From: Nonomuraea cypriaca | GTDB lineage: Bacteria > Actinomycetota > Actinomycetes > Streptosporangiales > Streptosporangiaceae | DNA length: 64,000 nucleotides | Direction of reading: 5' to 3' | Assembly (NCBI RefSeq): GCF_015645445.1 | Contig: NZ_JADOGI010000016.1 | Coordinates: 1 to 64,000, forward strand | Part shown: piece by piece, positions 1,167-62,737 of the stretch | How the letters are laid out: every line of letters starts with the position of its first letter | How positions within the stretch are numbered: the stretch's first letter is position 1 | Program-made: the position numbers and the translations under genes | Notes under the pieces: model-generated | What the model saw: the letters and a program-made list of their open reading frames with translations, nothing else | The model's database searches: none | Told to the model about the DNA's origin: nothing

Positions 1167-1183
1167 AGGTAGACAGACGGTCC

Positions 1184-1654: not shown

Positions 1655-2964
1655 CCATCGCACTCCGCTACGCCGCCCGCTCGGACGTCGGCCTCCTCCG
1701 CGAAGGAAACGAGGACTCGGCGTACGCTAGCGGCCGCCTGCTCGCCGTCGCAGACGGCATGGGCGGGCACGCACACGGCGAGGTGGCGAGCTCAGTCGCC
1801 ATCGCCGCCATGGCCTCTCTGGAAGAGGCCCAACAGGGGGGTGACCTGCTCAACACCATCGAGGCAGCGGTACGCGACGCCAACCGCAGGCTGCACGAAA
1901 TGGTGGGGCGGGATCCCAGCCTCAAAGGCATGGGCACGACTCTCACGGCCATGCTCTGGCACGGCACCCAGGTCGCCCTGGTGCACGTCGGCGACTCGCG
2001 CGCCTACCTGCTCAGGCGCGGGGAGCTCTACCAGATCACCCATGACCACACGCTGGTGCAGCAACTCGTCGACGACGGGCGCATCACGCCGGAGGAGGCA
2101 GCCACGCATCCACAGCGTTCGATCCTGCTACGCGCGCTCGACGGCAGCGGTGAGGTCGATCCCGATCTCACGCTCCGCGAGGCGCAGGTGGGCGATCGCT
2201 ACCTCCTGTGCTCCGACGGCCTGTCAGGTGTGGTGAGCGCGGAGACGCTGCACGCCACGCTGACCAACATCGACGACCCGGAAGAGGTCGTGCGCCAGCT
2301 CATCGACCTGGCCAACAGGGGCGGCGGGCCGGACAACATCACCTGCGTGCTGGCCGACGTCCTGGAGATCAGCGACGGGCAGCAGGTCCCGGCCGAGATC
2401 GCCGTCGTCGGCGCGGCGGGCATGAACCGGCTGCGCGGAAACCCTCACGACGGCTCGCCGGGGCAGATCAGCGCGGTGACGGCACCGCAGCCGACGCTCG
2501 CCGTCGACGAGGACTTCGACGAGCCGGTCGCGCAGGAGCCGCGGCGACCGGGCAGGCGTCGTCGCGTGTGGCCCATTCTGGTCACCGTGCTCGCCGCGAT
2601 CGTCGTCGGCGGGGGTTACTTTGGATACCAGTGGACTCAGGACCACTTCTTCGTCGGCGAAAGAAGCGGCGAAGTGGTCGTGTTCCAAGGGATCCAGAGG
2701 GAGGTGGGCCCGTTCCAGCTCTTCCACGTCTCCAAACCCACTGGCCGGCAGCTCTCCCAGCTGTCCGAGGCTGACCAGGCGCTGATCAAGAGCGGCATTC
2801 CCGTCACCACCGTCGCCGAAGGCATGACGAAAATCAACGGCTTGAAGTTCTCCGAGGCTTCGAAGGACGAGGCCGCGAAGGAAGGCGACACTCCCACGAC
2901 CGCGACCACGACGCCCTCCCCGGACGCATCCGCGACCGCGACCAAGACGAATCAGCAGCAATGA
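1651..2964 (+). CDS. pstP: PP2C-family Ser/Thr phosphatase PstP
   Basis: 437 residues. An N-terminal PP2C domain (about 1-235) has the metal-binding motifs EDS, DGMGGHAHGE, VGDSRAYL, SDGLSG and GGPDNIT. A linker and one membrane helix (about 308-328) follow, then an extracytoplasmic tail ending in a Thr/Ala/Ser-rich stretch. It dephosphorylates PknA, PknB and their targets. It overlaps fhaB (ATGA) and the next gene (ATGA), so it sits inside a tightly coupled operon. Confidence 0.95.
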   Translation: MTIALRYAARSDVGLLREGNEDSAYASGRLLAVADGMGGHAHGEVASSVAIAAMASLEEAQQGGDLLNTIEAAVRDANRRLHEMVGRDPSLKGMGTTLTAMLWHGTQVALVHVGDSRAYLLRRGELYQITHDHTLVQQLVDDGRITPEEAATHPQRSILLRALDGSGEVDPDLTLREAQVGDRYLLCSDGLSGVVSAETLHATLTNIDDPEEVVRQLIDLANRGGGPDNITCVLADVLEISDGQQVPAEIAVVGAAGMNRLRGNPHDGSPGQISAVTAPQPTLAVDEDFDEPVAQEPRRPGRRRRVWPILVTVLAAIVVGGGYFGYQWTQDHFFVGERSGEVVVFQGIQREVGPFQLFHVSKPTGRQLSQLSEADQALIKSGIPVTTVAEGMTKINGLKFSEASKDEAAKEGDTPTTATTTPSPDASATATKTNQQQ

Positions 2965-4355
2965 GCGAAGTCGCCGAATCCCCCGTCCCGATGCCGGCCA
3001 AACGGCGCGGGGCCCAGTTGATCATGCTCGCGCTGGCGGTGCTGATCGTCATGGGCGCGTACGCGAACGTGGGCCTGGCGATGGACGGCGCGATCCCCTC
3101 GGGCATGCTGACGTACGGTCTGAGCCTGGGCGGCCTGATGCTGGCGGCCTACCTCGTGCTCGCCAAGTTCGCCCCGTGGGCCGACCCCCTGATCCTGCCG
3201 CTCGTGACGCTGGTCAACGGTCTCGGGCTGGTGATGATCTACCGGCTCTCCGAGTCCGACTCGACCCTGCCGTCGGCCACGCTCGCCTCGCCCACCACCC
3301 AGCTGTTGTGGACGCTCGTCGGCATCGTGCTGTTCAGTCTCACTCTGATCTTCCTGCGCGATCATCGGGTGCTCCAGCGGCTGACCTACACCGCCGGCGC
3401 GCTGGGCCTGTTCCTGCTGGTCTCGCCGTTGATCCCGTTCCTCGGCCAGGAGATCAACGGCGCCCGGATCTGGATCGGCATCCCAGGGGTGGGCCAGATC
3501 CAGCCGGCCGAGTTCGCCAAGCTCGCGCTGGTCGTCTTCTTCGCCGGCTACCTGGTGGCCAAGCGGGACGTGCTCGCCCTCGCCGGGCGGCGGTTGCTGT
3601 TCATCGACCTGCCGCGGGCTCGCGACCTCGGCCCGGTGCTCATCACCTGGGGCGTCAGCCTGGGCGTCCTGATCATGCAGAAGGACCTGGGCTCCTCGCT
3701 GCTGTTGTTCGGCACGTTCGTGGCGCTGCTCTACGTCGCCACGCAGCGCAGTTCCTGGGTCATCATCGGCATCCTGCTCTTCGCGGGCGGCGCGATTCTG
3801 GCCGGCCTGGTCTTCGACCACGTTCAGCAGCGCTTCGAGGTCTATCTCAACCCCGGCGACCCCCAGCTGTTCGACCAGATCGGCGGCAGCGCCCAGCTCA
3901 TGCAGGGTCTGTTCGCCATGGGCTCGGGCGGCATCCTCGGCACGGGGCTCGGCGAGGGCCATCCCGAGCTGATCCCGCTGGCGTTCTCCGACTTCATCTT
4001 CAGCGCCACCGGCGAGGAGCTGGGCCTGACGGGCCTGATGGCGCTGCTGATGATCTACGCGTTGATCGTCGAGCGTGGTCTGCGCACCTCGCTCGCGGCC
4101 CGCGACCCCTACTCGAAGCTGCTGGCGTGCGGCCTGTCGTTCATTCTGGCCTGGCAGGTGTTCATCATCGTCGGCGGCGTGACGAACCTCATTCCCCTGA
4201 CCGGCCTGGTCACCCCGTTCATGTCCCAGGGTGGCTCGGCACTGCTTGCTAACTGGATCCTTATCGCGCTATTGGTACGCATGTCAGATACGGCCAGGCG
4301 CCCCCCGCCCCAAGCGATCCAGAACGAAGGAATGACACAGGTGTTCCAGCGATGA
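2961..4355 (+). CDS. rodA: SEDS peptidoglycan polymerase RodA/FtsW-like
   Basis: 464-residue polytopic membrane protein of the SEDS family with about ten membrane helices. The family pattern is visible in AEFAKLALVVF, MQKDLGSS and the C-terminal TGEELGLTG and PFMSQGGSA stretches. SEDS proteins polymerise lipid II into glycan strands and work with a class B penicillin-binding protein, here the next gene, which overlaps by four bases. Position beside pbpA and pknA/B fits the RodA of the actinobacterial elongation machinery rather than the division FtsW of the dcw cluster. Confidence 0.94.
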   Translation: MSEVAESPVPMPAKRRGAQLIMLALAVLIVMGAYANVGLAMDGAIPSGMLTYGLSLGGLMLAAYLVLAKFAPWADPLILPLVTLVNGLGLVMIYRLSESDSTLPSATLASPTTQLLWTLVGIVLFSLTLIFLRDHRVLQRLTYTAGALGLFLLVSPLIPFLGQEINGARIWIGIPGVGQIQPAEFAKLALVVFFAGYLVAKRDVLALAGRRLLFIDLPRARDLGPVLITWGVSLGVLIMQKDLGSSLLLFGTFVALLYVATQRSSWVIIGILLFAGGAILAGLVFDHVQQRFEVYLNPGDPQLFDQIGGSAQLMQGLFAMGSGGILGTGLGEGHPELIPLAFSDFIFSATGEELGLTGLMALLMIYALIVERGLRTSLAARDPYSKLLACGLSFILAWQVFIIVGGVTNLIPLTGLVTPFMSQGGSALLANWILIALLVRMSDTARRPPPQAIQNEGMTQVFQR

Positions 4356-5812
4356 ACGGCACTCTTAAGCGCATAGCGGTGGCCTGCCTGGCCATGTTCG
4401 CGCTGCTGATGATCAACGTGAACTTCCTGCAGGGGGTGCGGGCTGAGGGCCTCAGCTCGGACCCGCGCAACACCCGCAACTTCTACGAGCGTTACGCCAT
4501 CGAGCGCGGCCGCATCACCGCCGGCGGCGCGGTGATCGCCAGGTCCGTCGAGACCAAGGACGAGAACTTCAAGTTCATCAGGGAATACCCGGACGCCAAG
4601 CTCTACGCCCACGTCACCGGCTTCTTCTCGCCCGAGAGCGCGAGCGCGATCGAGCAGAGCGAGAACAGACTGCTCGACGGCTCCAGCGCGGACCTGCTGC
4701 TGCGGCGGAGCATCGACCTGTTCACCGGCGAGCCGACCAAGGGCGCCAACGTCGACCTCACGATCAACCCCAAGGCCCAGAAGGCCGCCTACGACGCGCT
4801 GCGGCAGAGCGGGAAGCGCGGCGCGCTCGTCGCGCTCGACCCGAAGACCGGGGCGATCCTGGCGATGGTCTCGCTGCCGACCTACGACCCGACCGAGCTG
4901 TCGGGCACCGACAAGGGCAAGGTCTTCTCGCGCTACGACGAGTTGGCCAAGGACAAGAGCCAGCCGCTGCTCAACCGCGCCATCGGGCAGACGTACCCGC
5001 CGGGGTCGACGTTCAAGGTGGTGACGACGGCGGCGTTCCTGGAGGACGACACCTCGCGCAACGCGCAGACCACCGTGGCGGCGCCGCAGCGGCTGCCGCT
5101 GCCCAACACGAACATCAGCCTGCCCAACTACGGCGGCTCGGCCTGCGGCTCCGGCCAGGTGACGCTGATCTTCGCGCTGGAGCAGTCCTGCAACACGCCG
5201 TTCGGCAAGATCGGCATGGACCTCGGCTACGACAAGATGAACGAGCAGACCGAGAAGTTCGGCATGGGCGAGCAGATCGGCGTGCCGATGTCGGTGGCCC
5301 AGAGCGACTTCGGTCCCGAGGAGGACCAGGCGGCCATGGCGATGGCCTCCATCGGGCAGCGGAGCAACCGGATGACGCCGCTGCAGATGGCCATGATCGC
5401 GGCCGGCATCGCCAACGAGGGCACGGTGATGAAGCCGTACCTCGTCAACAAGATCACTGACGCCAAGGGCGACGCGGTCGAGGAGGCTCAGCGCGAGGAG
5501 CTGACCGACGCGGTCAGCCCCGAGACGGCGAGCAAGCTGAACGAGATGATGGTGAGCGTCGTCAGCAACGGCACTGCCAACCATGCGCAGGTGCCCGGCG
5601 TCCAAGTAGCGGGAAAGACGGGCACCGCGGAGACTGCCGACGGCCAGCCGCCGCATGCCTGGTTCATCTCCTTCGCTCCGGCCGAGGACCCGAAGATCGC
5701 CCTCGCGGTGATCGTCGAGTCCGGCGCCGCCAACGTCGGCGCGGAGGCCACCGGCGGCGGCACCGCCGCGCCGATCGCGAAGGCCGTGCTGGAGGCGGTG
5801 CTGAACAAGTGA
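4352..5812 (+). CDS. pbpA: Class B penicillin-binding protein PbpA (transpeptidase)
   Basis: 486 residues. An N-terminal membrane anchor (about 8-28) precedes a transpeptidase domain exposed outside the cell. The active-site motifs are present: STFK (nucleophile Ser, in YPPGSTFKV), SCN and KTGTAE. It cross-links peptidoglycan stems and partners the RodA-type polymerase encoded immediately upstream with ATGA overlap. The next kinase gene can start directly at the base after its stop. Confidence 0.95.
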   Translation: MNGTLKRIAVACLAMFALLMINVNFLQGVRAEGLSSDPRNTRNFYERYAIERGRITAGGAVIARSVETKDENFKFIREYPDAKLYAHVTGFFSPESASAIEQSENRLLDGSSADLLLRRSIDLFTGEPTKGANVDLTINPKAQKAAYDALRQSGKRGALVALDPKTGAILAMVSLPTYDPTELSGTDKGKVFSRYDELAKDKSQPLLNRAIGQTYPPGSTFKVVTTAAFLEDDTSRNAQTTVAAPQRLPLPNTNISLPNYGGSACGSGQVTLIFALEQSCNTPFGKIGMDLGYDKMNEQTEKFGMGEQIGVPMSVAQSDFGPEEDQAAMAMASIGQRSNRMTPLQMAMIAAGIANEGTVMKPYLVNKITDAKGDAVEEAQREELTDAVSPETASKLNEMMVSVVSNGTANHAQVPGVQVAGKTGTAETADGQPPHAWFISFAPAEDPKIALAVIVESGAANVGAEATGGGTAAPIAKAVLEAVLNK

Positions 5813-7210
5813 GTGACGGTAACCTGCTGGATCATGCGGCTCCGTAACCGCTATCTCCTGGTCTCCCGCATCGCCACGGGCGGTATGGGAGAGGTGTGGC
5901 GTGCCCGCGACGAGCTTCTCGGCCGCGAGGTCGCGGTGAAGATCCTGCGCAGTCACATCTACGCCGACCCCACGTTCAGGGAGCGGTTCCGCAACGAGGC
6001 CAGGATCACCGCGGCGCTGGCCGACCCCGGAGTCGCGCAGATCTTCGACTACGGCGAGCAGAGCGATCTCGCCTATCTGGTGATGGAGCTCGTGCACGGC
6101 GAGCCGCTGTCGACCATCCTGGCCCGCAACGGCGCGCTCGGGCCCGAGGTGGCGCTCGACGTGCTGCACCAGACCGCCAAGGCGCTGCACGCCGCCCACT
6201 CCGCCGGGATCATCCACCGCGACATCAAACCGGGCAACCTGCTGGTCACGCCCGAGGGCACGATCAAGGTGACCGACTTCGGCATCGCTCGGGCGCTGGA
6301 GGCGGCGCCGGTGACGCAGACCGGCACGGTGCTGGGCACCGCCCAGTACGTCAGTCCCGAGCAGGCGCAGGGCTTCCCGCTCACGCCCTCGACCGACCTC
6401 TACTCCCTGGGCGTGGTGGCGTACGAGTGCCTGGCGGGGCGCACGCCGTTCCGCGGCGACACCCAGGTGGCGATCGCGCTGCAGCACCTCAACGAGCCGC
6501 CGCCACCGCTCGGCGTGGACGTGCCCGCGCCGGTGCGCGAGCTGGTCCTGGGGCTGCTGGCCAAGGAGCCCGAGCAGCGCCCGGGCTCGGCGCTGGAGCT
6601 GGCCGACCGCGCCTACGTGCTGCGCGAGTCACTGGCGGGCGCCGAGCGGGGCGCGGAGCTCAGCATGCTCACCGACCCGTCGGGTTTTCGCGTACGCGAT
6701 CCGGAGACCGGTGCCGAGGCGCGGCCCGAGGACGAGCTGGTGACCGACAAGTTCGGCCCCGCGACGGCCCTGCAGGTGCGTCAGGCCCCTCCTGGCCGGC
6801 GCAAGGGCGGGCGGACGTTCACCCTGGTGGCCACGGCGGGCTGCGTGGCCGCGGTGGGGCTCAGCGCCATCACGTTCGCCGACCGCGAGCCGCCCCCGCG
6901 ACCGCCCGATGTGTCCGAGCCCACGGAGTCGACGATGCTGACCCCCGAGCAGGCACGGCCCAGCACCAAGAGGACGCGCACGCGGCGGCCACCGGTCGTT
7001 CCGGTGAAGACGCGCGGGCCGATACCCTCACGGTCGGCTACCGTAAGCAAGTCGGCAAGTCCTAGCAAGAAGCCGACACCGAAACCGACACCGACCACCC
7101 GGACCCCGACACCCACGCCCACCCCAACGCCCACCACTACACCGACAACTCCGACACCGACCGCCTCGCCAGACCCGGGTGAGACAAACCCGCCCAAGGA
7201 GGAGACGTGA
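5813..7210 (+). CDS. pknA: Ser/Thr protein kinase PknA
   Basis: Hanks-type kinase with a Gly-rich loop (ATGGMGEVW), VAVK lysine, HRDIKPGN catalytic loop, DFG and APE-equivalent SPEQ. One membrane helix at about residues 340-360 follows, then a Pro/Thr-rich tail with PTPTPT repeats and no folded sensor domain. GTG 5813 abuts the pbpA stop; ATG 5834 is an equally plausible start because it begins right before the kinase fold. It phosphorylates cell-division and wall-synthesis proteins together with PknB. Confidence 0.92.
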   Translation: MTVTCWIMRLRNRYLLVSRIATGGMGEVWRARDELLGREVAVKILRSHIYADPTFRERFRNEARITAALADPGVAQIFDYGEQSDLAYLVMELVHGEPLSTILARNGALGPEVALDVLHQTAKALHAAHSAGIIHRDIKPGNLLVTPEGTIKVTDFGIARALEAAPVTQTGTVLGTAQYVSPEQAQGFPLTPSTDLYSLGVVAYECLAGRTPFRGDTQVAIALQHLNEPPPPLGVDVPAPVRELVLGLLAKEPEQRPGSALELADRAYVLRESLAGAERGAELSMLTDPSGFRVRDPETGAEARPEDELVTDKFGPATALQVRQAPPGRRKGGRTFTLVATAGCVAAVGLSAITFADREPPPRPPDVSEPTESTMLTPEQARPSTKRTRTRRPPVVPVKTRGPIPSRSATVSKSASPSKKPTPKPTPTTRTPTPTPTPTPTTTPTTPTPTASPDPGETNPPKEET

Positions 7211-7293
7211 CGCGTCACGGGGTCGATGATGGACACCGGCGGCCCCCCGCGCAGGCCGGTACCCAAGATGAACGGTAAGGGACAGTGCAGGAA

Positions 7294-9150
7294 ATGACTC
7301 AGCCTCGGCTACTCGGAGGTCGTTACGAGCTCGACGGTGTCGTCGGGCGTGGCGGCATGGCCGAGGTGTATCGCGCCCGAGACATCCGGCTGGACCGCAT
7401 AGTCGCGATCAAAACCCTCCGGTCCGACCTGGCGCGAGACCACACCTTCCAGGCCCGGTTCCGCCGCGAGGCACAGTCCGCGGCCTCCCTGAACCACCCG
7501 GCCGTCGTCGCGGTCTATGACACCGGCGAGGACGTCACCGACGGTGCCCCCGTGCCGTACATCGTGATGGAGTACGTCGACGGCAGGACGCTGCGCGACC
7601 TGCTGCGCCAGGACCGGCGGTTGCTGCCGGAGCGCGCGAGCGAGCTGGTCGACGGCATTCTGCGGGCGCTCGACTACAGCCACCGCGGCGGGATCGTGCA
7701 CCGCGACATCAAGCCGGCCAACGTGATGATCACGCGCGCCGGCGACGTCAAGGTGATGGACTTCGGCATCGCGCGGGCGATGGCCGACTCCGCGGCCACG
7801 ATGACGCAGACGGCGCAGGTGATCGGCACCGCTCAGTACCTCTCGCCGGAGCAGGCCCGGGGCGAGCGGGTCGACGCGCGCAGCGACATCTACTCCACCG
7901 GCTGCCTGCTGTACGAGCTGCTGACCGGCCAGCCGCCGTTCACCGGCGACTCCCCGGTCGCGATCGCCTACCAGCACGTGCGCGAGGAGCCGATCCCGCC
8001 GTCGCAGATCGACCGCGAGATCCCCGCGTGGGCCGACGCGATCGTGCTCAAGGCCATGGCCAAGGACCCGGCGCACCGCTACCAGAGCGCGGGCGAGATG
8101 CGGGCCGACATCCAGCGGGCGATGTCCGGCATGCCGGTCGACGCCCAGACGATGGCGATGACCGGCAACTACGGCCAGGGCACCCGCATGATGTCCACCA
8201 CGCAGGCGGGCGCGGGTCCATCCACGCAGCGCACCGGCGCGGTCCCGCCCTACGAGTACGGCGAGGGTGAGGGCGGCGGCCGCGGCGGGCGGCGCAGGGC
8301 CAGCGGCGGAGGCGGCAACGCCGTCAAGACCGCCCTGTGGATCGTCATTCCGCTGCTGATCATCGGCGCGTTCGTGACGGTCGGCTACCTGGTCTTCGGC
8401 AACCCGGGCGCTCCCGCGGAGACGTCCATCGAGATTCCGTCGCTCGTCTCGCAGCAGCGGGCCTTCGCGGAGGATCAGCTCAAGAAGCTCGAGCTCAACG
8501 TCGAGGTGGTGCAGGAGTTCAACTCCGACGTCGACAAGGGCACCGTGATCAAGACGGAGCCGGCCGAGGGCACCAAGGTCAACAAGGGCGACAACGTCAA
8601 GCTGTTCGTGTCCAAGGGCGTGGAGAAGATCCAGGTGCCCGCCGGGCTCGTCGGCCTCTCCCAGGACGAGGCGATGAAGATGCTGTCGGACGCCGAGCTG
8701 CGCGGCACCGTCAAGACCAGGGTCTCCAGCAAGAAGCAGGGCACGGTCATCGACACCAGGCCCAAGGCCGGTGAGGAGATCGAGAAGAACGGCACCGTCA
8801 CCCTCTACGTGCCCAAGGATCTGGGCGAGGTCCCCAGCGTGATCGGGCTCACCGAGGAGGACGCCAGGGCTCAGATCGAGGGCGCCGGGTTCAAGGCGAA
8901 GGTCGTCCCGCAGCCCGCCCAGGACCCGCAGGGCACGGTCGTCCAGCAGAACCCGGCTGATGGCACCCCGCTGCCACCGGGCACGACGGTCACGATCGTG
9001 GTGTCCACCGGTCCCGAGTTCCCGACCGAGCAGCCCACGGAGGAGTTCCCGTCCGACCTGCCCACGGAGGAGCAGCCGACGGAAGAGTTCCCGGATGAGC
9101 AGCAGCCTCCGGAGGACAACCCGATCGACGACGGGGGCCTCAGCGGCTGA
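7294..9150 (+). CDS. pknB: PASTA-domain Ser/Thr kinase PknB
   Basis: 618 residues. Kinase domain about 1-275 (GRGGMAEVY, VAIKTL, HRDIKPANV, DFG, SPEQARG), juxtamembrane linker, single membrane helix at about 348-370, then three extracellular PASTA repeats and an acidic Glu/Pro-rich tail. PASTA repeats bind muropeptides or lipid II, so this is the wall-damage sensor of the cluster. I chose ATG 7294 because AAGGGA at 7277 is well spaced; the in-frame GTG at 7285 is too close to it. A strong terminator follows. Confidence 0.95.
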   Translation: MTQPRLLGGRYELDGVVGRGGMAEVYRARDIRLDRIVAIKTLRSDLARDHTFQARFRREAQSAASLNHPAVVAVYDTGEDVTDGAPVPYIVMEYVDGRTLRDLLRQDRRLLPERASELVDGILRALDYSHRGGIVHRDIKPANVMITRAGDVKVMDFGIARAMADSAATMTQTAQVIGTAQYLSPEQARGERVDARSDIYSTGCLLYELLTGQPPFTGDSPVAIAYQHVREEPIPPSQIDREIPAWADAIVLKAMAKDPAHRYQSAGEMRADIQRAMSGMPVDAQTMAMTGNYGQGTRMMSTTQAGAGPSTQRTGAVPPYEYGEGEGGGRGGRRRASGGGGNAVKTALWIVIPLLIIGAFVTVGYLVFGNPGAPAETSIEIPSLVSQQRAFAEDQLKKLELNVEVVQEFNSDVDKGTVIKTEPAEGTKVNKGDNVKLFVSKGVEKIQVPAGLVGLSQDEAMKMLSDAELRGTVKTRVSSKKQGTVIDTRPKAGEEIEKNGTVTLYVPKDLGEVPSVIGLTEEDARAQIEGAGFKAKVVPQPAQDPQGTVVQQNPADGTPLPPGTTVTIVVSTGPEFPTEQPTEEFPSDLPTEEQPTEEFPDEQQPPEDNPIDDGGLSG

Positions 9151-53676: not shown

Positions 53677-54834
53677 TCAGCGACACCGGCGGGCGTTGAG
53701 ACGGGCGGCCTGGCGCGTCAGGTGGTCGCGCTCGGCGAGGTTGGGTGCCTTTCTGGCCGCCTCGGCGTACAGCCGTGCCGCCGTCACCATGTCGCCGTCG
53801 CGCTCGTGGAGGTACGCCGCCACCGCGGCGTGGCGGGGCAGTGAGTCGTCCAGCGCCGCGAGCGCCGCCAGCCCGGCGCGCGGTCCGTCGGCCTCGCCGA
53901 CGGCCACCGCGCGGTTGAGCCGCACGACCGGGCTGTCGGTCAGGCGCACGAGCTCGTCGTACCACTCGACGATCTGCACCCAGTCGGTCTCCTCGGCGGT
54001 GGGCGCGTCAGCGTGGAGTGCCGCGATGGCGGCCTGGGCCTGGAATTCGCCCAGCCGGTCGCGGGCGAGGGCCGCCTGCAGGACCTCGACGCCCTCGGCG
54101 ATCAACTTGGTGTCCCATCGGCCGCGGTCCTGCTCGGCGAGCGGCACCAGGCTGCCGTCGGGCGCGGTCCGAGCGGCGCGCCGGGCGTGGTGGAGCAGCA
54201 TGAGGGCGAGCAGCCCCGCCACCTCGGGGAGGTCGATCGCGGCCGCGAGCTGCCGGGTGAGCCGGATGGCCTCGGCGGCGAGGTCGACGTCGCCGGAGTA
54301 GCCCTCGTTGAAGACCAGGTAGAGGACGCGCAGCACGGTGGCGACGTCGCCGGGCTGGTCGAACCGCACGCCGGAGACGGTGCGCTTGGCCCGGCTGATG
54401 CGCTGCGCCATGGTCGCCTCGGGCACCAGGTAGGCCTGGGCGATCTGGCGGGTGGTCAGCCCTCCGACGGCACGCAGCGTGAGCGCGACCGCGGACGACG
54501 GCGTCAGCGACGGATGGGCGCACAGGAAGTAGAGCTGGAGCGTGTCGTCTGCCGCGGGCGCGGGCCCGGGCGCCGGCTCCTCGTCGACGAGGTCCTCACG
54601 CCGGCGGCGGGCGGCGTCCGCCCGGGTCGCGTCGAGGAACTTGCGCCAGGCCACGGTGACCAGCCAGCCCTTCGGGTCGCGCGGCGGGTCGGCCGGCCAG
54701 ACGCGGACCGCCTCGACCAGCGCGTCCTGCACGGCGTCCTCGGCCGCCGCGAAGTCGGCTCCGCGGCGGACGAGGATCCCGAGCACGCTCGGCGTGAGGC
54801 TCCGGAGCAGGACCTCGTTCTCTTGAGAGGTCAT
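53677..54834 (-). CDS. ECF sigma factor with C-terminal SnoaL/TPR-like extension (ECF42-like)
   Basis: 385 residues from ATG 54834. Region 2 (AAEDAVQDALVEAVRVWPAD) and region 4 (LTTRQIAQAYLVPEATMAQR) are standard ECF. A 200-residue helical extension (FNEGYSGDVDLAAEAIRLTR ... AARLNARRCR) is the DUF6596-type domain of ECF42 sigma factors. These are typically co-encoded with a YciI/DGPF protein, exactly as here, where the two overlap by four bases. No anti-sigma factor gene is present. Confidence 0.9.
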   Translation of the reverse strand: MTSQENEVLLRSLTPSVLGILVRRGADFAAAEDAVQDALVEAVRVWPADPPRDPKGWLVTVAWRKFLDATRADAARRRREDLVDEEPAPGPAPAADDTLQLYFLCAHPSLTPSSAVALTLRAVGGLTTRQIAQAYLVPEATMAQRISRAKRTVSGVRFDQPGDVATVLRVLYLVFNEGYSGDVDLAAEAIRLTRQLAAAIDLPEVAGLLALMLLHHARRAARTAPDGSLVPLAEQDRGRWDTKLIAEGVEVLQAALARDRLGEFQAQAAIAALHADAPTAEETDWVQIVEWYDELVRLTDSPVVRLNRAVAVGEADGPRAGLAALAALDDSLPRHAAVAAYLHERDGDMVTAARLYAEAARKAPNLAERDHLTRQAARLNARRCR

Positions 54835-55238
54835 TCCGTGATGGTGGGCGGCTCGGCCAGGAACGGGCGCACCTCGAGCCACTCGTGGATCGTCTCCCCG
54901 CCCGCTCCAGGGGCGGCCGACAGCTCCCCGGCCAGCTCGATGGCGCGCTCGTAGCTGTCGACGTCGATCACCATCCAGCCGGCGATGAGGTCCTTGGTCT
55001 CGGCGAACGGGCCGTCGGTGACCGGCGGGCGCCCCTCGCCGTCGTACCGGACGAACGTCCCCTCGGAGGCGAGCGCCTGACTGTCGACGAACTCGCCGGT
55101 CCCCTCGAGCCGGGCCGCGAAGTCGCGCATGTACTGCACGTGCGCCGAGATCTCCTCCGGCGTCCACTGGTCCATGGGCACGTCGTTGACCGCAGCCGGA
55201 GCGCCGCGGTAGTGCTTGAGCAGCAAGTACTTGGCCAT
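54831..55238 (-). CDS. YciI/DGPF-domain protein
   Basis: 135 residues from ATG 55238 (AGGAG upstream). The DGPF signature is VTDGPFAETKDLIAGWMVID, with the ferredoxin-like YciI fold around MAKYLLLKHYRG. Members are obligate genomic partners of ECF42 sigma factors and may transmit the signal. The ATGA overlap with the sigma gene supports co-translation. Confidence 0.9.
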   Translation of the reverse strand: MAKYLLLKHYRGAPAAVNDVPMDQWTPEEISAHVQYMRDFAARLEGTGEFVDSQALASEGTFVRYDGEGRPPVTDGPFAETKDLIAGWMVIDVDSYERAIELAGELSAAPGAGGETIHEWLEVRPFLAEPPTITE

Positions 55239-56350: not shown

Positions 56351-57895
56351 ATGTATGACGAACCGGCACCGCCACCCTCCCCCGCCGCGCGCGCCTGGAG
56401 CCTGTTACGACAGGTGGGGACGCTCTTTCACCGGCGCTTGGTGGTGATCGTCGTTGTCGTCGCCCTCCTGATATCCACTGTGGTACTCGTGAGTTACACC
56501 CAGGAGTGGTGGCCCTGGGCCGGCTGTGAGACAACGAGCGCGGACGTCGTCGCCATCGAAGGCGAATGCGTCGGCCTGATGGACCCAGCCGACGGGACGA
56601 TGGTCCTGGGCGAGCAGTATCGCAAGATCCTGGAGGTCATCGCCGCGGAAAACCGCACGGTCACCGAGGGCGAGGACTACAGCACGATCGCGCTCTTGGC
56701 CCCGATGGGGGCAGGCCCGCGGGGACTGGTCGGCGAGCGCGCCCTCCACCAGCTCGAGGGAGCGTTCATCGGCCAGTACCGCGCCAACCGTTCTGAGACG
56801 TTCCCCAAGATCCGGCTCCTGCTGGCCAACACCGGTCACGACGGCTCGAAGTGGCGGACGACGGTGCAGGCGGTGCGGAAGAACGCCGCGACGGGTGCGA
56901 CGGCCAGCCCCGGACAGATCGTCGCGGTCACCGGAATGGGCCCGAGCCAGCAGGAAAGCATCGACGCCGCACGTGCCTTGGCCAAGGATCCCGGAATCCC
57001 GATGGTCGCCGATTTCATCACCGCGGCCGGGTTCAACACCACCGGTGAGATCGACGACGGCGGACCCATTCCTGGCCTCACCAGCACCGCGGTCAGCACC
57101 TCGGCCCAGCTGAAGGCCATCGCAGAAGAGTTCAAGAAGGAGAAGGTCGGGGGGGACGCGGCCCTGATGTGGGCTGACGTGACCCCGCAGGGAACAAAGG
57201 ACCTTTACGCCAGCTCGCTGAAGGACGCCTTCCTCGATCCGAAGCTCGGGCTCAAGCCGTATGTCGACAGGTCCGGGCTCAGTTTTCCCTTCGACCCGCG
57301 TGGCGGTCCCTCGCTCCTGCGGACCATCAGCGACACGATCTGCGGGGCGAAGATCGACATGATCTTCTACGCCGGTCGGCAGGCGTTCATGCCCACCTTC
57401 CTCAAGCTGCTGCGGAGCCGGCCCTGCCGATCCACGACCATCACCGTGGTCACCGGCGACGACGCCCAGGACCAGAATCCGAACGATCCCTCGCTGCACG
57501 ACCCGGAAGCGCCTATCAAGGTGCTGTACGTGCCGCTCGCCGATCCCAAGCGGCTCGACCACGAGGACAATCCGGACCGCCAGCTCTACCGCGAATTCCG
57601 TGACGAGTTCGTGGCGCCACACCATGGGGTGACCTTCCCCGCGGCGCATCTCGGCACCGGGTTGGCGATCTTGTCGTATGACGCGGTGACCGCCGCGTCC
57701 ACCGCGGTTCAGAAGGCCGCCATCGGCGTGGACGCGTCCCAGCTCACCCTGCCCTCCGCCGCGGCGGTGCGCGGGCAGCTCTACCTGTTCACCGGCACCA
57801 ACGTCATCCGCGGCGCCAGCGGCGCCTTCACCCTCGACTCCACGACCGGGGAGCGGGTGAACGTCACCATGCCCACCCCCGTGACTATCCCGTGA
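56351..57895 (+). CDS. Membrane-anchored type-I periplasmic-binding-protein-like receptor
   Basis: 514 residues. A short Pro-rich cytoplasmic start and one membrane helix (about 31-48, [20 protein letters not shown]) precede a long external domain of binding-protein fold: [15 protein letters not shown], a ligand-loop [20 protein letters not shown], and [17 protein letters not shown] near the end. It resembles branched-chain-amino-acid (Leu/Ile/Val) receptors but lacks a lipobox and transporter genes, so it looks like a sensor. It converges on the FHA kinase gene with an 11-bp overlap. Confidence 0.75.
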
Positions 57896-59075
57896 CCACG
57901 ACGACCACCGTCAGCGCCACAGCCGCCATGAGGAAGAGCAGCAGCCACCAGCGCGTGGCGGACAGTCGGGGGAGCCGTACGCGCTCCAACTCCCCCGCCT
58001 CGGTGAGGCGGAGCACCGCCGTACCGATCGTGAACCGATCACCCGGTCGCAGGGTCGCGTAGAGAACAGGGCGGCCGTCGATGAACGTCCCCAGGCCGCT
58101 GCTGTGGTCATGCAGCCGGTAGCCTGCGCTCACCTTGCGGACGGTGGCGTGCGCCGGGGCGATCCCCTCCCCGGGGATCACGATGTCGGCCGCGGGCCCG
58201 CTGCCCAGCGTGGTGGTGTCCTTCAGCGTTCCGAGGGCGGCCGGCAAGATCCGGGTATGTGGCACCGTCGCCTGCGCGGTTTCCGACTGATGTCCCACGA
58301 GGCGGCCGAGCAGTTCCATGGTGGTGGGCCGCCACGCCGGATTCTTGGCGAGGCATTCGGCGAGCAGTGAACGCAGCGGCTCTGATATCACTCCCACGTC
58401 GGGGGTCTCGGTCAGGACGCGGTTGATGATGACGGCCACGTTGCTCCCCGCGAACAACACCCTGCCGGTGGCGGCGAAATACACCGTGCCTGCCCACGCG
58501 TGCACGTCGGCGGGGGGACCCACTTCGGCGTCGAACCCTCCGACCTGCTCCGGTGCGAGATAGCCGGGGGTTCCCACGGTCGTGGTGCTCGCGGCGGTCG
58601 CCTCCAAGGCCCGTGCGACTCCGAAGTCCACGACACGTGGTCCGTCCGGCCCGATGATGACGTTGGCGGGCTTGAGATCCCGGTGGATGACTCCCACGCC
58701 ATGGATCGCCGCCAATGCGGTGGCCGTATAGGTCGCCAGGCGCTCAAGCGCGGACCCCGACAGCGGCCCGTGCTTGTCGACGAGCTCCTGCAGGGACGGG
58801 CCCTCCACGTATTCGCTCACGATGTACGGCTGGTCGCGGTCGATGTCGGCGTCGATGATCATCGCCGTGTACGCCCTGGGCACCCGCGACGCGATGGCCA
58901 CCTCGTCCGCGAACCGCCTGCGCGCTCTCGGGTCGGCTGCCCCCTGCGCGTGGATCACCTTGATCGCGACCCGGCCCGCCTCGCCCTGCGCGAGGTAGAC
59001 CGTACCCTGACCGCCGGCACCCAGGCGGCCGAGCACCTCGTAGGGCCCGATGCGCCGTGGCTCGCCGGTGTTCAT
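57885..59075 (-). CDS. Ser/Thr kinase with FHA domain and membrane helix
   Basis: 396 residues. The kinase domain (about 10-262) has [26 protein letters not shown] and APEQ. A FHA-like module follows (about 285-365, [26 protein letters not shown]), then a C-terminal membrane helix (about 373-393). The FHA domain could read phosphothreonines made by this or the neighbouring kinase. It is the last gene of the minus-strand signalling operon and starts directly at the preceding stop. Confidence 0.88.
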
Positions 59076-60113
59076 TCAGACTCCCAACGTGACCGCGACG
59101 ACGACGGCGATCGCCGCCAGGACGACGATCAGCACCACGATTCCCCCGTGCCGGGCACGCGAGCCGTCCCCGACCGCGGACTTCCCCCGCCGCCACGCCT
59201 CGCGTAGGTTGGAGTCGGTCTCGACGTAGATGCGTTCGGGAGTGACGAGCCACCGCCACGACTCGCCCGCCGCCCGCCATCGCTCGGTGTCCACCGATTC
59301 CGGCGCACCGTCCAGACACTGCCTTATCAGGCGGCGATGCCGCAATGGCAGGACCCTGGCGAGCGCGGCCTCGTCGAGCGACCACGCCTCGGCGCTCTCC
59401 TGGAGGCACCGCACGACGGCCCAGGCGAACTTGTAATAGTCCGACTCCGGGGTGAATCCCCCTTCACGCGGGAGTTTCCACTGCTCGGGATCGACCTCGG
59501 GCAAGGCGCCGGGGCCTCCGACCGGCAGGCAGGAGTCGCAGTCCAGCAGGTATACCGCGGGCGCCGGGTCGACGGTGAAGACGGCGTTGCGCAGTTGCAG
59601 ATCGCCCACCACATAACCCTGCTCGTGCAGCCACTGCACCGTGGCGAGCAACTGGCCGAGGACGGCCAGCTTGTAGGGCGGCTCATAGTAGCGCGTACCG
59701 TAGTGGTCGCGAAGGGCGCTCACCCGTTCGGGCGACCGAGTGAGCTCATCCAGGTGTCGCGGCATCAGGCGGGTGCGGAGCTCGACGAACATCTGCTCGG
59801 GAGCGGGCCTGATCAAGATGCCGGTGACCCGGTCGTGCCGGACCACCGCGACCGGCCACGCACAGCGCCGATCGAGTGTCGCGCGGTCCTGCCGGGGAAG
59901 TTCACGCCGCCAGCGCACCATGGCGAGCAGGGCGTCCTCGTCCAGCCCCGTCAGCGTCTCCTCGTCGTACCGTTTGAAAAGAAACCGGCCAGGGACGCCG
60001 CTGACCTCGCACGGCGCCAGGCTGCGAGCCTGACCGCCCGGGCGCAGGTGGTAGACGTCGGCGTCCGCGGGGGACGTCAGATCCGCTTCCTCGACCACAT
60101 CTGGGGGATTCAT
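59076..60113 (-). CDS. Atypical protein kinase-like protein with C-terminal membrane helix
   Basis: 345 residues. The fold is kinase-like but the motifs are non-classical: a nucleotide Lys in RFLFKRYDE, a catalytic loop VVGDLQLRNAVF in place of HRD-x-K-x-N, and a metal loop LLDCDSCLPV in place of DFG. These GDxxxxN and DCDS patterns are those of kinases in TerY-P triads. A helix at about 325-343 anchors it. Located between a PP2C and an FHA kinase, it is likely a signalling kinase. Confidence 0.72.
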   Translation of the reverse strand: MNPPDVVEEADLTSPADADVYHLRPGGQARSLAPCEVSGVPGRFLFKRYDEETLTGLDEDALLAMVRWRRELPRQDRATLDRRCAWPVAVVRHDRVTGILIRPAPEQMFVELRTRLMPRHLDELTRSPERVSALRDHYGTRYYEPPYKLAVLGQLLATVQWLHEQGYVVGDLQLRNAVFTVDPAPAVYLLDCDSCLPVGGPGALPEVDPEQWKLPREGGFTPESDYYKFAWAVVRCLQESAEAWSLDEAALARVLPLRHRRLIRQCLDGAPESVDTERWRAAGESWRWLVTPERIYVETDSNLREAWRRGKSAVGDGSRARHGGIVVLIVVLAAIAVVVAVTLGV

Positions 60114-60134
60114 ACTTCTGCCGCCGCACTCCTG

Positions 60135-61220
60135 TCACAGAACGGCCGTGTCGTGACGGCCCGCCCACAACGCCAGAACCGTCCGGTCGTCGTCGTAAGT
60201 CGACAGATGGAAATCCACATCGCGCAGGAAGCCGCGCAGCGCGGGCGGAGAGCTCCACGAGGTGACGAGCCGCTGGGCGAGTGTGCTGCCGCCGCCGCCC
60301 ATGGCCGTCCCGAACCCGTCGCTGCACAGGACCAGCACATCGCCCGGCCCCCAATCGATCTGCCGTTCCCGCAGCTCACCGAGGTCCTCCGGCAGGGCGG
60401 ACGTGACGTTGTCCGGTCGCTGCCCATCAGGTGGGAAGATCTCGGTCCACGTCCCGTCATGGAGCCACAGCGCCGGCGAGTCCCCGATGGCCGCGCAGGC
60501 GGCGATCCCGCGCCTGCCGTCGGCGGGGACCACCCCGATCGTCAGCGTCGTGGCGGGCGGATCCGATGCTCCGGCGCCGTGCTTGCCGGTGGGTTTGCCG
60601 GTGGGCCGGCCGCCGAGCCTGGCGGTGGCGCGCATGACCTCCGCGGCGACGGTGGCGAAGGCCGCGTGCCAGCCGCCGGGGTCGGGGGTCAGGGAGAGGT
60701 TCGTGGCGGCGCGTACGGCCACCGCGGCGGCGTGTTCGGCGTGCAGCGTGCTGCCCAGCCCGTCAGCCACGGCCGCGATAACCCATCGTCCGTCCGCGCT
60801 CAGCCGTACGGCGTAGGCGTCCTGCAGGGGCTCGCCGCGATATCGATGGCGCCGGCCGCGGATGCTCACGGCGCGGACCGTGGTCTGCGCCAGCATGCCG
60901 CCGTCGAGTGCGACGCCCGGGGCGCGCGAGTCCGCCCCGCCCGGGAGCAGGACGGGCAGCGGCTGCGGGAGCGGACCGAGCGGCGTTCTGGCGTCGGCCG
61001 CGGCGCGGGTCCTGCGGGCGAGCAGTAACTGCCCGAGGAGTACGGCGCCACCGCCGGCGATGCCGGACAGGATCCACAGCGGCCAGCCCGACGCCGTCCC
61101 GTCGCCCTGCCGCGGACCGGGCGTCACGGTCACCGTCACAGTCGGCTCCGGCGACGGACCAGGCTTCGCCCCCATGGAGCCGACAACCAGAAGTAATCCC
61201 ACCAGCGTCGCCCTGATCAT
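60135..61220 (-). CDS. Membrane PP2C-family phosphatase
   Basis: 361 residues. A signal-like first helix, a short Pro/Thr external segment, and a second helix (about 50-70) precede a cytoplasmic PP2C domain. Metal motifs are QDAY, AAVADGLGSTLHAEHAA, AIGDSPALW, LCSDGFG and the final DDRTVLALW. It is the PP2C_2/TerY-associated type and would oppose the neighbouring kinases. It overlaps the vWA gene (ATGA). Confidence 0.85.
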   Translation of the reverse strand: MIRATLVGLLLVVGSMGAKPGPSPEPTVTVTVTPGPRQGDGTASGWPLWILSGIAGGGAVLLGQLLLARRTRAAADARTPLGPLPQPLPVLLPGGADSRAPGVALDGGMLAQTTVRAVSIRGRRHRYRGEPLQDAYAVRLSADGRWVIAAVADGLGSTLHAEHAAAVAVRAATNLSLTPDPGGWHAAFATVAAEVMRATARLGGRPTGKPTGKHGAGASDPPATTLTIGVVPADGRRGIAACAAIGDSPALWLHDGTWTEIFPPDGQRPDNVTSALPEDLGELRERQIDWGPGDVLVLCSDGFGTAMGGGGSTLAQRLVTSWSSPPALRGFLRDVDFHLSTYDDDRTVLALWAGRHDTAVL

Positions 61221-61918
61221 CTCAGTTGCCGCATCCCGCCGGGTCCGCGCAGAACGGCCGTGTTCCTGTTGACCGAGGCGCTGATGCTGTCCGAGACGGC
61301 CTGCGCGATGCCGTGCAGCACGGTGGCCGCTCCCGTCGCGATCTCGCCCGCGAAGGCCAGCAGCTCGCCCCTGAGTGTGGTGGCGACCCGCCGCAGGGTG
61401 TCCTCCTGCACCGTCCCGAATCCGAGCGCCACGATGTACGGCGCCGGCTGAAGGCTCGCCAGCCGGTCGCGCGCGGGGCCCCAGATCTCGACGTCCTGAT
61501 GGGTTTCGCCAACGTACGGATCACCGTCTGTGATGAAGAAGACAACCGGCGCCCGCACGTCGAACTGCTTGGACAGCTTCCGGTAATCCTTCTCAATGAT
61601 CTTCACGAGCTCCCTGAAGACCACCAGATAATCCGTCTGCCTGCCGGGTCTCAGGGCCGGAACCCTGATCGCGTCACAGGGCCTGGTCAGCGGAAGCACC
61701 AGCTCGACCTTGTCGGAGAAGGACACCACGGCGACGTGCGCGGCCTCGCTGACGCCGGGATCGCCCGCCTCCAGCTCGAAGAGCAGCTCACCCACGCAGT
61801 TGGAGAGGACCTCGAAGGGGGTGGGCCGTCCATCCTCGCGAGCGGTGTGCATCGAATGCGATACATCGCACACGATGTAAAAGGGGAAGGCGCGGGGGCG
61901 CCCGTTCGCCGATCTCAT
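61217..61918 (-). CDS. TerY-like von Willebrand factor A domain protein
   Basis: 233 residues, essentially one vWA domain. The MIDAS motif is IVCDVSHSM (D-x-S-x-S), with further ligands in RPGRQTDYL and FFITDGDPYVGE. TerY-type vWA proteins act as metal-dependent scaffolds in the Ter stress systems and in TerY-P triads with a PP2C and a kinase. The four-base overlap with PP2C and the kinase order reproduce that triad. Confidence 0.87.
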   Translation of the reverse strand: MRSANGRPRAFPFYIVCDVSHSMHTAREDGRPTPFEVLSNCVGELLFELEAGDPGVSEAAHVAVVSFSDKVELVLPLTRPCDAIRVPALRPGRQTDYLVVFRELVKIIEKDYRKLSKQFDVRAPVVFFITDGDPYVGETHQDVEIWGPARDRLASLQPAPYIVALGFGTVQEDTLRRVATTLRGELLAFAGEIATGAATVLHGIAQAVSDSISASVNRNTAVLRGPGGMRQLR

Positions 61919-62056
61919 CGGCTTTTCATCCTGATGGGGATTGCCGGTCTTGGCAAGGTTGCGAACAGAAGGATGACTTCAGAGGGTTCGCGGCTAACAG
62001 CCGGTATCGCGGCGAGGCCGGCCTCGTCTCCACCACCGCTGGCCAGACCCCGGGAC

Positions 62057-62737
62057 TCAGCCTGGGACAGTCGGGTCACGGAAGAGGAAGTAGTTCGAGT
62101 GGTCCGTGTGCAGGTACTGGTGGAACCGTGTGGCCTTCGCATGGGCTGTCTTGTCGGCGGTGACGGCCGTGAGGAGGACGTACCTCTTGGTGGAGCTCGA
62201 CCGGATCTTGCCGTATGCGTACTTGCCGAGCATCTTGTCCCGGCGCCACTTCACGGCCCGGGAGGAGTTCGCCAGATGCTTGGCCGTGGCCTTGGCGGCC
62301 GTCACTGTGGGAAAGGACATGATGACCTGGACCGCCGTGAGATGCCCCCGGTAGGCCGAGTAGGCCAGTTGTGCGGCGCGCTCGCACTTGTTTTCGGCCA
62401 GCACACCCTGCCTGTCGATCGGGGCACAGGAGTCGTACGTCCAGCCACCCGCCCTCTCAGCCTTGAACGTGACGCTGCCCAGGCGAAAGTTCCAGTCGCC
62501 GAACTCGTCGTCGTCGATCGGCGAGCCGGGGCGTCTGTTCTCGCTGGGGCTCGGCTCGTCGGGCTCGGGTGTGGGCTCCGTGGTCGGCAGGGCCACAGCG
62601 GTGTTCCGGTCGGGGGCGTTCAGGTGGTTGTACACGCTCAACGTGAAGCCGCCCGGCAGGAGCACCGCCAGGATCGCGACCAGAGTGGTGACCACACCGG
62701 GGTAGTCCCGCGGGTCGGACTGCCGAGGGTATCCCAT
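62057..62737 (-). CDS. Membrane-anchored hypothetical protein
   Basis: 226 residues. A single membrane helix (about 17-35, VTTLVAILAVLLPGGFTLSV), a Pro/Glu/Ser-rich linker and a C-terminal globular part (WTYDSCAPIDRQGVLAENKC ... FLFRDPTVPG) with two cysteines that could pair. No family is recognised. No SD is seen; CACAAT six bases upstream would suit a leaderless start. It is the first gene of the minus-strand signalling operon, 138 bp before the vWA gene, so it may be an external sensor. Confidence 0.7.
   Translation of the reverse strand: MGYPRQSDPRDYPGVVTTLVAILAVLLPGGFTLSVYNHLNAPDRNTAVALPTTEPTPEPDEPSPSENRRPGSPIDDDEFGDWNFRLGSVTFKAERAGGWTYDSCAPIDRQGVLAENKCERAAQLAYSAYRGHLTAVQVIMSFPTVTAAKATAKHLANSSRAVKWRRDKMLGKYAYGKIRSSSTKRYVLLTAVTADKTAHAKATRFHQYLHTDHSNYFLFRDPTVPG

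What the first reader, a model, noticed from the sequence alone, without database searches (positions are those of the whole stretch)
56351..62737. Expanded, membrane-tethered TerY-P-like signalling cassette
A minus-strand operon encodes, in order, a membrane protein of unknown function, a TerY-type vWA protein, a membrane PP2C phosphatase, an atypical GDxxxxN/DCDS kinase and an FHA kinase. A convergent gene encodes a binding-protein-like receptor on a membrane anchor. The core vWA-PP2C-kinase order follows the TerY-P triad described by Anantharaman, Iyer and Aravind. Here it gains a second kinase with FHA, external sensors, and membrane helices on every member except the vWA protein. No ter genes (TerB/C/D/E) are in sight. 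This could be an undescribed phospho-signalling system that senses an extracellular ligand.
Basis: partly seen in the sequence, partly recalled or inferred. Interest (0 to 1): 0.68.

Follow-up and report, generated by a model that had tools for sequence, protein, structure and literature searches.

The report
Receptor-linked TerY-P-type membrane phosphosignalling cassette
A block of five linked bacterial genes appears to let the cell sense a small molecule outside and pass the message inside through two protein kinases, a phosphatase and a metal-binding partner; it is a new variant of a known three-gene signalling kit, and nothing has been tested at the bench.

Summary
Five genes (vWA, PP2C, atypical kinase D, kinase-FHA E, convergent receptor F) form the unit; the 226-residue gene does not. 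All five occur in 13 of 13 named orthologous loci in the same arrangement. Full-length F and D occur in the same 15 of 54 genus genomes and the same 13 of 297 order genomes, although the flanks fall into at least seven arrangements. F belongs to a LivJ-like solute-binding family with one membrane anchor. The 226-residue family is multi-copy and also found without the cassette.

The most informative new result is in family relatives. There the PP2C itself can carry an extracellular OpuAC-like solute-binding domain (2 of 4 scanned). The window lineage lacks that domain and has receptor F, of another binding-protein type, instead. E's place is taken by a similar kinase, an FHA-ABC exporter or a PASTA protein. 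E's FHA domain lacks the canonical phosphothreonine-binding residues. Best reading: a receptor-gated, membrane-anchored TerY-P-type phosphorylation switch. Ligand, targets and physical contacts are unproven.

The parts
61217..61918 (-). Gene B: TerY-like stand-alone vWA protein, 233 aa, soluble; MIDAS residues D18-S20-S22, T95, D131
   Evidence: VWA_2 2.6e-7; those five residues the same in 15 of 15 aligned proteins; no TM helix
60135..61220 (-). Gene C: membrane PP2C phosphatase, 361 aa; catalytic domain about 121-351 after TM helix 50-68; lacks the extracellular OpuAC-like domain seen in relatives
   Evidence: PP2C_2 1.5e-23; acidic metal-site residues kept in 8 of 8 aligned, relatives included; OpuAC on 2 of 4 relatives' PP2C scanned
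59076..60113 (-). Gene D: atypical kinase of the TerY-P type, 345 aa; K47, GD171xxxxN176, D191CDS; C-terminal membrane tail 325-343
   Evidence: profile vs PDB kinases 1.4e-10; K47, D171, N176, D191 in 14 of 14 diverse kinases; TM
57885..59075 (-). Gene E: Hanks-type kinase (12-256) + degenerate FHA domain (288-351) + C-terminal membrane tail 378-396
   Evidence: Pkinase 8.4e-41, FHA 1.1e-11; K39, E58, H131, D133, N138, D150-F-G kept in 14 of 14 (R132 in 13); FHA residues GR/SxxH/NG replaced
56351..57895 (+). Gene F: single-pass receptor, 514 aa, short cytoplasmic N-terminus (inferred), TM 30-48, extracellular LivJ-type solute-binding domain; convergent with E
   Evidence: family profile vs PDB Leu/Ile/Val-binding protein 3.3e-10; co-occurrence with D; dN/dS 0.16
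62057..62737 (-). 226-aa single-TM protein: neighbour, judged NOT part of the unit

Best explanation
The five genes make one membrane-bound phosphorylation switch. F, anchored by one helix, binds a small solute outside the cell with its LivJ-type domain. Binding changes the balance between the membrane PP2C phosphatase (C) and the two tail-anchored kinases (D, E) on the inner face. The vWA protein B is the soluble adaptor or substrate whose phosphorylation state carries the signal. I think the most likely entry point is C, because in relatives a solute-binding domain sits on C itself; F would replace that domain in trans. E's FHA probably acts as a docking domain that does not read phosphothreonine in the usual way. 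Shown: the genes, their domains and motifs, and their strict linkage. Inferred from relatives: sensing through a solute-binding domain. Inferred only: physical contacts, direction of the signal, B as the output, the ligand.
For: Five genes intact, same order and orientation, in 13 of 13 named loci and in two further genomes (L109, L139), with at least seven flank arrangements. F and D in the same 15 of 54 genus genomes and the same 13 of 297 order genomes. F's family is a solute-binding fold; many of its other members look like signalling receptors by context: beside a 564-705 aa protein in nine fetched loci (AAA match in 3 of 7 of these scanned), or fused to a long N-terminal region. Relatives' PP2C carries OpuAC in 2 of 4 scanned (1.9e-10, and 1.9e-4 just over Pfam's cut-off). 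In the D tree the five-gene clade lies inside a 100/100 clade with L044 and L142-L147; an 89/89 branch joins it to L142-L145 and L147. Catalytic and MIDAS residues are kept in B, C, D, E. A solute-binding protein acting on a Ser/Thr kinase is described for GlnH-GlnX-PknG (abstracts of PMC6069109, PMC9769921).
Against: F is on the opposite strand, so it needs its own promoter and may not be co-expressed. No complex was modelled; both structure predictions were poor (mean pLDDT 34 for F, 46.9 for D) and were not used. OpuAC was not found by Pfam in 2 of the 4 relatives' PP2Cs scanned (L145, L147), and a profile of that region meets OpuCC chains only at E 0.003. F and OpuAC are different binding-protein types, so replacement is an analogy, not descent. 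L044 has the triad with neither receptor. E's kinship to the relatives' kinases is not exclusive: a kinase elsewhere in L034's flank scores nearly as well (267 bits against 295-331). In related genomes linkage is not independent of ancestry.
Confidence: 0.57

Rival explanations
1. It is an anti-phage defence module of the TerY-P kind, in which phosphorylation triggers growth arrest on infection, and F is a surface sensor or an incidental passenger.
For: A TerY-P module is reported to act against T7-like phages (passage in PMC7699616; a PMC11090510 passage says the OB-fold kinase version works stand-alone). E's kinase domain matches PADLOC's PD-T4-6 models up to 3.2e-52 and NCBIfam's MAD6 (1.8e-28), though such kinase models are generic. 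Patchy distribution (15 of 54 genus genomes) and likely exchange with another genus (G295: D 94% but PbpA 69% identical).
Against: No nuclease, pore or other killing component in the unit; D has a membrane tail, with no OB-fold or zinc ribbon match; F is under strong purifying selection (dN/dS 0.16), not the fast change expected of a phage sensor; in the 10 of 11 cassette genomes tested that hold both on one contig, the cassette keeps a position about 40-90 kb from pbpA.
Confidence: 0.21
2. It senses cell-envelope state rather than a solute, and feeds into envelope building or export.
For: Two relatives have a PASTA-domain membrane protein in E's place (L143 by Pfam; L144 by near-identity), one has a kinase-FHA-ABC exporter fusion (L145) and one an FHA-ABC exporter (L146). 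The cassette lies in the same chromosome region as the pknAB cell-wall kinase operon.
Against: F is a solute-binding fold with no known wall-binding domain; the window lineage has neither PASTA nor ABC parts; closeness of 40-90 kb is weak evidence.
Confidence: 0.22
3. The reader's six-gene system, with the 226-aa protein as a second sensor.
For: The 226-aa gene lies beside the cassette in 7 of 16 distinct genomes checked.
Against: It is on different sides of the cassette; 8 of 15 genomes with a full-length copy have no cassette; in G031 (L135) it has the window's right-hand neighbours but no cassette; profile comparison with the outer domain of other triad kinases gave nothing (probability 0.19%).
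Confidence: 0.05
4. F is an ordinary transport binding protein or an unrelated gene that sits next to a TerY-P operon by descent.
For: Convergent orientation; linkage among related genomes can persist by chance; F's more distant relatives live without this cassette.
Against: F stays with the block although flanks change; full-length F never occurs without full-length D in the 54 or the 297 genomes; it is membrane-anchored and no permease is in the unit.
Confidence: 0.1

Closest known systems
TerY-P triad (Anantharaman, Iyer and Aravind 2012; seen only as cited in passages of PMC11090510 and PMC4978471)
   Same: TerY-like vWA, PP2C and atypical Ser/Thr kinase in adjacent genes
   Different: Kinase has a membrane tail instead of a zinc ribbon or OB-fold; PP2C is membrane-bound; adds a second kinase with a degenerate FHA and a solute-binding receptor
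Actinobacterial kinase-PP2C-vWA theme of GAP1-N2 systems (PMC7159879, section 29 read)
   Same: Kinase, sometimes with TM helices, linked to PP2C and a stand-alone vWA gene in actinobacteria
   Different: That section links it to GAP1-N2 GTPase genes and names no binding-protein receptor or FHA kinase with it; I did not test for GAP1-N2 genes in the flanks
GlnH-GlnX-PknG (abstracts of PMC6069109, PMC9769921)
   Same: An outside solute-binding protein is proposed to control an actinobacterial Ser/Thr kinase through a membrane protein
   Different: Different kinase; the abstracts name no vWA or PP2C; GlnX has four TM segments; F is itself the anchored receptor
Kinases fused to solute-binding or ANF-receptor domains (PMC1262709, passages)
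   Same: Binding-protein domain joined to a bacterial Ser/Thr kinase
   Different: There it is fused to the kinase; here it is separate (F) or, in relatives, fused to the phosphatase
FHA-ABC exporter Rv1747 with kinase PknF (abstract openings of PMC3908365 and PMC5549992; domain order recalled)
   Same: Relative L145 fuses an E-like kinase, an FHA and an ABC exporter; L146 has FHA-ABC beside D
   Different: The window's E keeps only kinase, FHA and a tail

Membership tests
TerY-P triad | TerY-like vWA with intact MIDAS | tested here: met
   D18, S20, S22, T95, D131 in 15 of 15; VWA_2 2.6e-7. TerY identity itself was not tested with a TerY model
TerY-P triad | PP2C phosphatase next to it | tested here: met
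TerY-P triad | atypical kinase next to it, with catalytic residues | tested here: met
TerY-P triad | kinase C-terminally fused to zinc ribbon or OB-fold | tested here: not met
   D ends in a hydrophobic tail and has no Pfam match of any kind. PMC7159879 section 29 allows TM helices instead for actinobacterial versions, so it is filed as a variant, not a plain member
TerY-P triad | association with ter or DNA-processing genes | not tested
   Neighbouring genes were clustered, not scanned for ter or nuclease domains
GlnH-GlnX-PknG | solute-binding protein acting on a kinase through a separate membrane protein | not testable with these tools
   needs binding and interaction data
Solute-binding receptor (LivJ type) | type I binding-protein fold | tested here: met
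   by sequence only: family profile 3.3e-10 to 4n0q; no Pfam match for F alone; structure prediction failed
Canonical FHA (phosphothreonine-binding) | GR, SxxH, NG residues (as named in PMC1262709) | tested here: not met
   E has GS (14 of 14), A in place of S in SxxH (14 of 14), and LG in place of NG (12 of 14; RG and LR in one each); FhaA- and FhaB-like proteins in the same window have GR, SRHH or SSRH, and NG

The most novel reading that the evidence does not exclude
A bacterial receptor-phosphatase signalling class: the PP2C, not the kinase, is the sensory entry point of a membrane TerY-P module, and lineages swap its outer sensor between a fused OpuAC-like domain and a separate LivJ-like receptor, while the fourth slot is swapped among kinase, kinase-FHA, FHA-ABC exporter and PASTA protein.
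Probability: 0.37. Interest if true: 0.68.

Novelty: new variant of a known kind. Interest (0 to 1): 0.52.

Why it matters
What TerY-P modules sense is, as far as I know, open. Here, and in relatives, a solute-binding domain is physically or genetically tied to the module, which makes the input directly testable by ligand screening. It would also give a second way, beside GlnH-GlnX-PknG, for an actinobacterium to couple an outside solute to Ser/Thr phosphorylation, with the phosphatase as the likely entry point.

Tried and rejected
Six-gene unit: rejected. Homology of the 226-aa protein to the outer domain of other triad kinases, suggested by eye: not supported (hhalign). AlphaFold models of F and D: too poor, so no fold search was run. 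Plasmid collection: 3 records with D relatives; L029 is filed there but is an 11.85 Mb replicon. PADLOC: strong but generic kinase matches for E, a weak one for D (MkoA 0.0015), none for the other four. Search for YegI/K/L papers: nothing that I followed up. Class-wide search: 2 of 296 drawn genomes match at E<=1e-40, both of the genus; most of the list was not shown, so I cannot say which relatives were drawn, and I conclude nothing beyond the order. Not in print: searches found no paper that, by listing or passages, describes a TerY-P module with a solute-binding receptor; the library lacks most subscription papers, and Anantharaman 2012 and Gao 2020 themselves were not read.

Mended on re-check: L138 (G064) proved 100% identical to L029 over 16,966 bases and L148 to L033, so distinct genomes are 16, not 17; the nearest kinase to E outside the relatives is one in L034's flank (3.1e-80), not 3e-50 as alone suggested, because that list left out the cassette loci. 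For this I lowered the main confidence and the novel case by 0.01 each and raised the defence rival by 0.01 for the PADLOC matches.

Rows dropped: L029 was left out of the structure jobs; L146 (PP2C cut by the contig end) from the PP2C alignment; one search used 9 of the 14 orthologue sets; one search used 6 cassette D proteins. From the count of 24 triad loci I left out L031, L049, L050, L051, L053, L054 and L108, in which I did not see all three genes; L146 is counted although its vWA end is cut off. L108 (3 kb) was not gene-called.
Full report
What is there. The six ORFs are present as described. vWA (B) and PP2C (C) overlap by 4 nt, D follows C after 21 nt, E follows D with no gap, and the convergent receptor F overlaps the end of E by 11 nt; the 226-aa gene stands 138 nt upstream of B. 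Pfam sees VWA_2 on B, PP2C_2 on C, Pkinase and FHA on E, and nothing on D, F or the 226-aa protein. Profiles made with relatives place D among protein kinases (best chain 4jrn, 1.4e-10) and F among LivJ-type binding proteins (4n0q, 3.3e-10; metabotropic glutamate receptor outer domains next). Hydropathy gives a helix in each but B.

The unit. A genome scan with D gave 12 named loci: 10 labelled Nonomuraea, one [Actinomadura] parvosata and one Streptosporangium sp. KLBMP 9127; with N. gerenzanensis that is 13. All 13 hold B-C-D-E in order with F convergent; E and F overlap in 11 of 13 and are 61 and 115 nt apart in the other two. Two further genomes (L109, L139) show the same by gene clustering, so with the window 16 distinct genomes; L138 is the same DNA as L029, and L148 as L033. 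In 54 genus genomes full-length F (over 1140 bits) occurs in 15 and full-length D (over 660 bits) in the same 15, about 1.2-1.3 kb apart in each. In 297 order genomes both occur in the same 13, one of them (G295) outside the genus. Random labelling would give the genus coincidence with probability 1.2e-13, but the genomes are related, so this is not a true significance. Better evidence is that the flanks fall into at least seven arrangements while the block stays whole, although six genomes (L029, L032, L038, L041, L042, L109) share flank genes on the F side, and the window some of the same. All five genes are under purifying selection: mean dN/dS 0.14 (B), 0.24 (C), 0.27 (D), 0.29 (E), 0.16 (F) over 36 pairs of 9 sets each.

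The 226-aa protein is a neighbour. It is beyond F in 5 of 13 named loci and absent from the fetched flanks in 8. With L109 and the window it is adjacent in 7 of 16 genomes, and on the vWA side only in the window. Its family matches in 34 of 54 genus genomes; 15 carry a full-length copy (over 375 bits), 8 of them without the cassette. In G031 it has the window's right-hand neighbours without the cassette (L135).

Position and transfer. Of 11 cassette genomes in which I sought pbpA of the pknAB operon, 10 have both on one contig, about 40-90 kb apart; in G011 they are on different contigs. In G295, another genus, PbpA is 69% identical to the window's (82-87% in the 11 genus genomes tested besides the window's own), yet D is 94% identical (G295 and KLBMP 9127 carry the same sequence). 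I infer horizontal exchange of the block; recombination in place would fit the conserved position.

Relatives. I fetched 24 triad loci that are not orthologues: none has an F-like frame in its flanks by either F profile, six frames, E<=1e-3, so the receptor is not general to TerY-P. Six family relatives with D at about 300-390 bits are telling. L142: B, PP2C of 698 aa with OpuAC match 1.9e-4 (21.6 bits against a cut-off of 21.2), D, an E-like kinase. L143: B, PP2C of 632 aa with OpuAC 1.9e-10, D, a PASTA membrane protein; L144 is nearly the same by sequence (not scanned itself). L145: B, PP2C of 646 aa, D, and a 1150-aa kinase-FHA-ABC exporter fusion. L147: B, PP2C of 709 aa, D, E-like kinase. 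L146: PP2C cut by the contig end, D, FHA-ABC exporter. L145 and L147 gave no Pfam match in the outer region, though I could align it with L143's (23-27% identity), and a profile of it reaches OpuCC chains only at 0.003. A seventh, L044 in the genus, has the bare triad. In the D tree these seven and the cassette type form a 100/100 clade; the cassette clade is joined to L142-L145 and L147 at 89/89, with an 82/89 branch inside, so the exact place is unsure. Among fetched loci E's kinase is nearest to those of L145, L142 and L147 (331, 318, 295 bits), but a kinase in L034's flank follows at 267 bits, so orthology is likely, not proven. E's FHA is nearest to those of L145 and L146 (1.2e-18, 2.6e-16; next 1.6e-14).

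The receptor family. In nine fetched genus loci (L092-L094, L096-L099, L103, L104) F's paralogues are single-pass binding proteins beside a 564-705 aa protein. Of seven such proteins scanned, three match AAA models (L093 and L104 over a cut-off, L096 below), four do not (L092, L098, L099, L103). In L095, L100 and L102 the receptor is fused to a long N-terminal region. Of seven nearer relatives from the order search, L160 and L162 sit beside a protein with a Walker A motif (AAA_22 over the cut-off only for L160), L157 has a weak HTH_31 match below the cut-off and an AAA-LuxR gene downstream, and L161 has a kinase gene five genes away. None is adjacent to a kinase-phosphatase unit. So this outer receptor seems to be plugged into different inner machinery; the window lineage plugs it into a TerY-P-type cassette.

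Activity. B keeps its MIDAS residues in 15 of 15; D keeps K47, D171, N176, D191 in 14 of 14 diverse kinases; E keeps its catalytic set in 14 of 14 except R132 (13); C keeps its acidic residues in 8 of 8. E's FHA is different: the residues that read phosphothreonine (GR, SxxH, NG as given in a passage of PMC1262709) are GS (14 of 14), AxxH (14 of 14) and LG (12 of 14; RG and LR in one each), while the FhaA- and FhaB-like proteins in the same window keep them. The L145 and L146 FHA domains also lack them.

How it most likely works. F binds a solute outside; the change passes through its single helix to the membrane-anchored PP2C and kinases; the vWA protein's phosphorylation state carries the message. 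The PP2C is my preferred entry point because relatives put a solute-binding domain on it. Linkage and domains are shown; sensing is inferred from relatives; contacts, direction, output and ligand are unknown. GlnH-GlnX-PknG is a precedent for solute to kinase (abstracts of PMC6069109, PMC9769921). The defence rival stays open: a TerY-P module acts against T7-like phages (PMC7699616 passage), and E's kinase matches PADLOC's PD-T4-6 kinase models (3.2e-52), which may be generic.

Known or new. The core is a TerY-P-type triad with a membrane tail where zinc ribbon or OB-fold is described (PMC11090510 passages); PMC7159879 section 29 already mentions actinobacterial kinases with TM helices beside PP2C and vWA, and its section 33 mentions TM plus binding-protein domains in another system. 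The receptor, the second kinase and the exchange of sensor between phosphatase-fused and separate forms were not found in the papers searched. I rate it a new variant of a known kind.

Noticed in passing
window 585-9150 (+): A FhaA-FhaB-PP2C-RodA/FtsW-PbpA-PknA-PknB(PASTA)-like operon lies in the same window (Pfam; gene names recalled); the cassette stays about 40-90 kb from its pbpA in 10 of 11 genomes tested.
   Followed up: partly
L145:5307-8759 (-): One 1150-aa protein fuses a Ser/Thr kinase, an FHA domain, an ABC ATPase and a six-helix ABC-2 permease, directly after vWA-PP2C-D.
   Followed up: partly
L092:5216-8796, L093:5899-9506, L104:6325-9743: Two-gene pairs: a large, in part NTPase-like protein overlapping or touching a single-pass solute-binding receptor; nine such loci seen; may be an undescribed receptor-NTPase signalling pair.
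   Followed up: partly
L095:7630-10335, L100:6777-9416, L102:6815-9397: The same receptor fused to an N-terminal region that by eye resembles a degenerate NTPase lacking Walker A; L095 has no Pfam match.
   Followed up: no
L045-L047, L105-L107 (triad kinases): Other TerY-P-like kinases of the genus carry a conserved cysteine-containing C-terminal domain of about 150 residues after a hydrophobic stretch.
   Followed up: no
window 62057-62737 and 34 of 54 genus genomes: The 226-aa family is multi-copy and the window copy has no Pfam match; one TM helix and a conserved outer domain.
   Followed up: partly
window 53677-54834 and 54831-55238 (-): ECF-like sigma factor with DUF6596 overlapping a small protein that by eye looks like a YCII-type protein.
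   Followed up: no
L157:10237-12966 (+): An AAA_16-LuxR (GerE) regulator lies downstream of a receptor with a weak HTH match, F's nearest relative outside the cassette in the order search.
   Followed up: no
L034:4274-7750 (+): A long frame with a kinase domain close to E's (267 bits) lies upstream of the cassette in N. basaltis.
   Followed up: no
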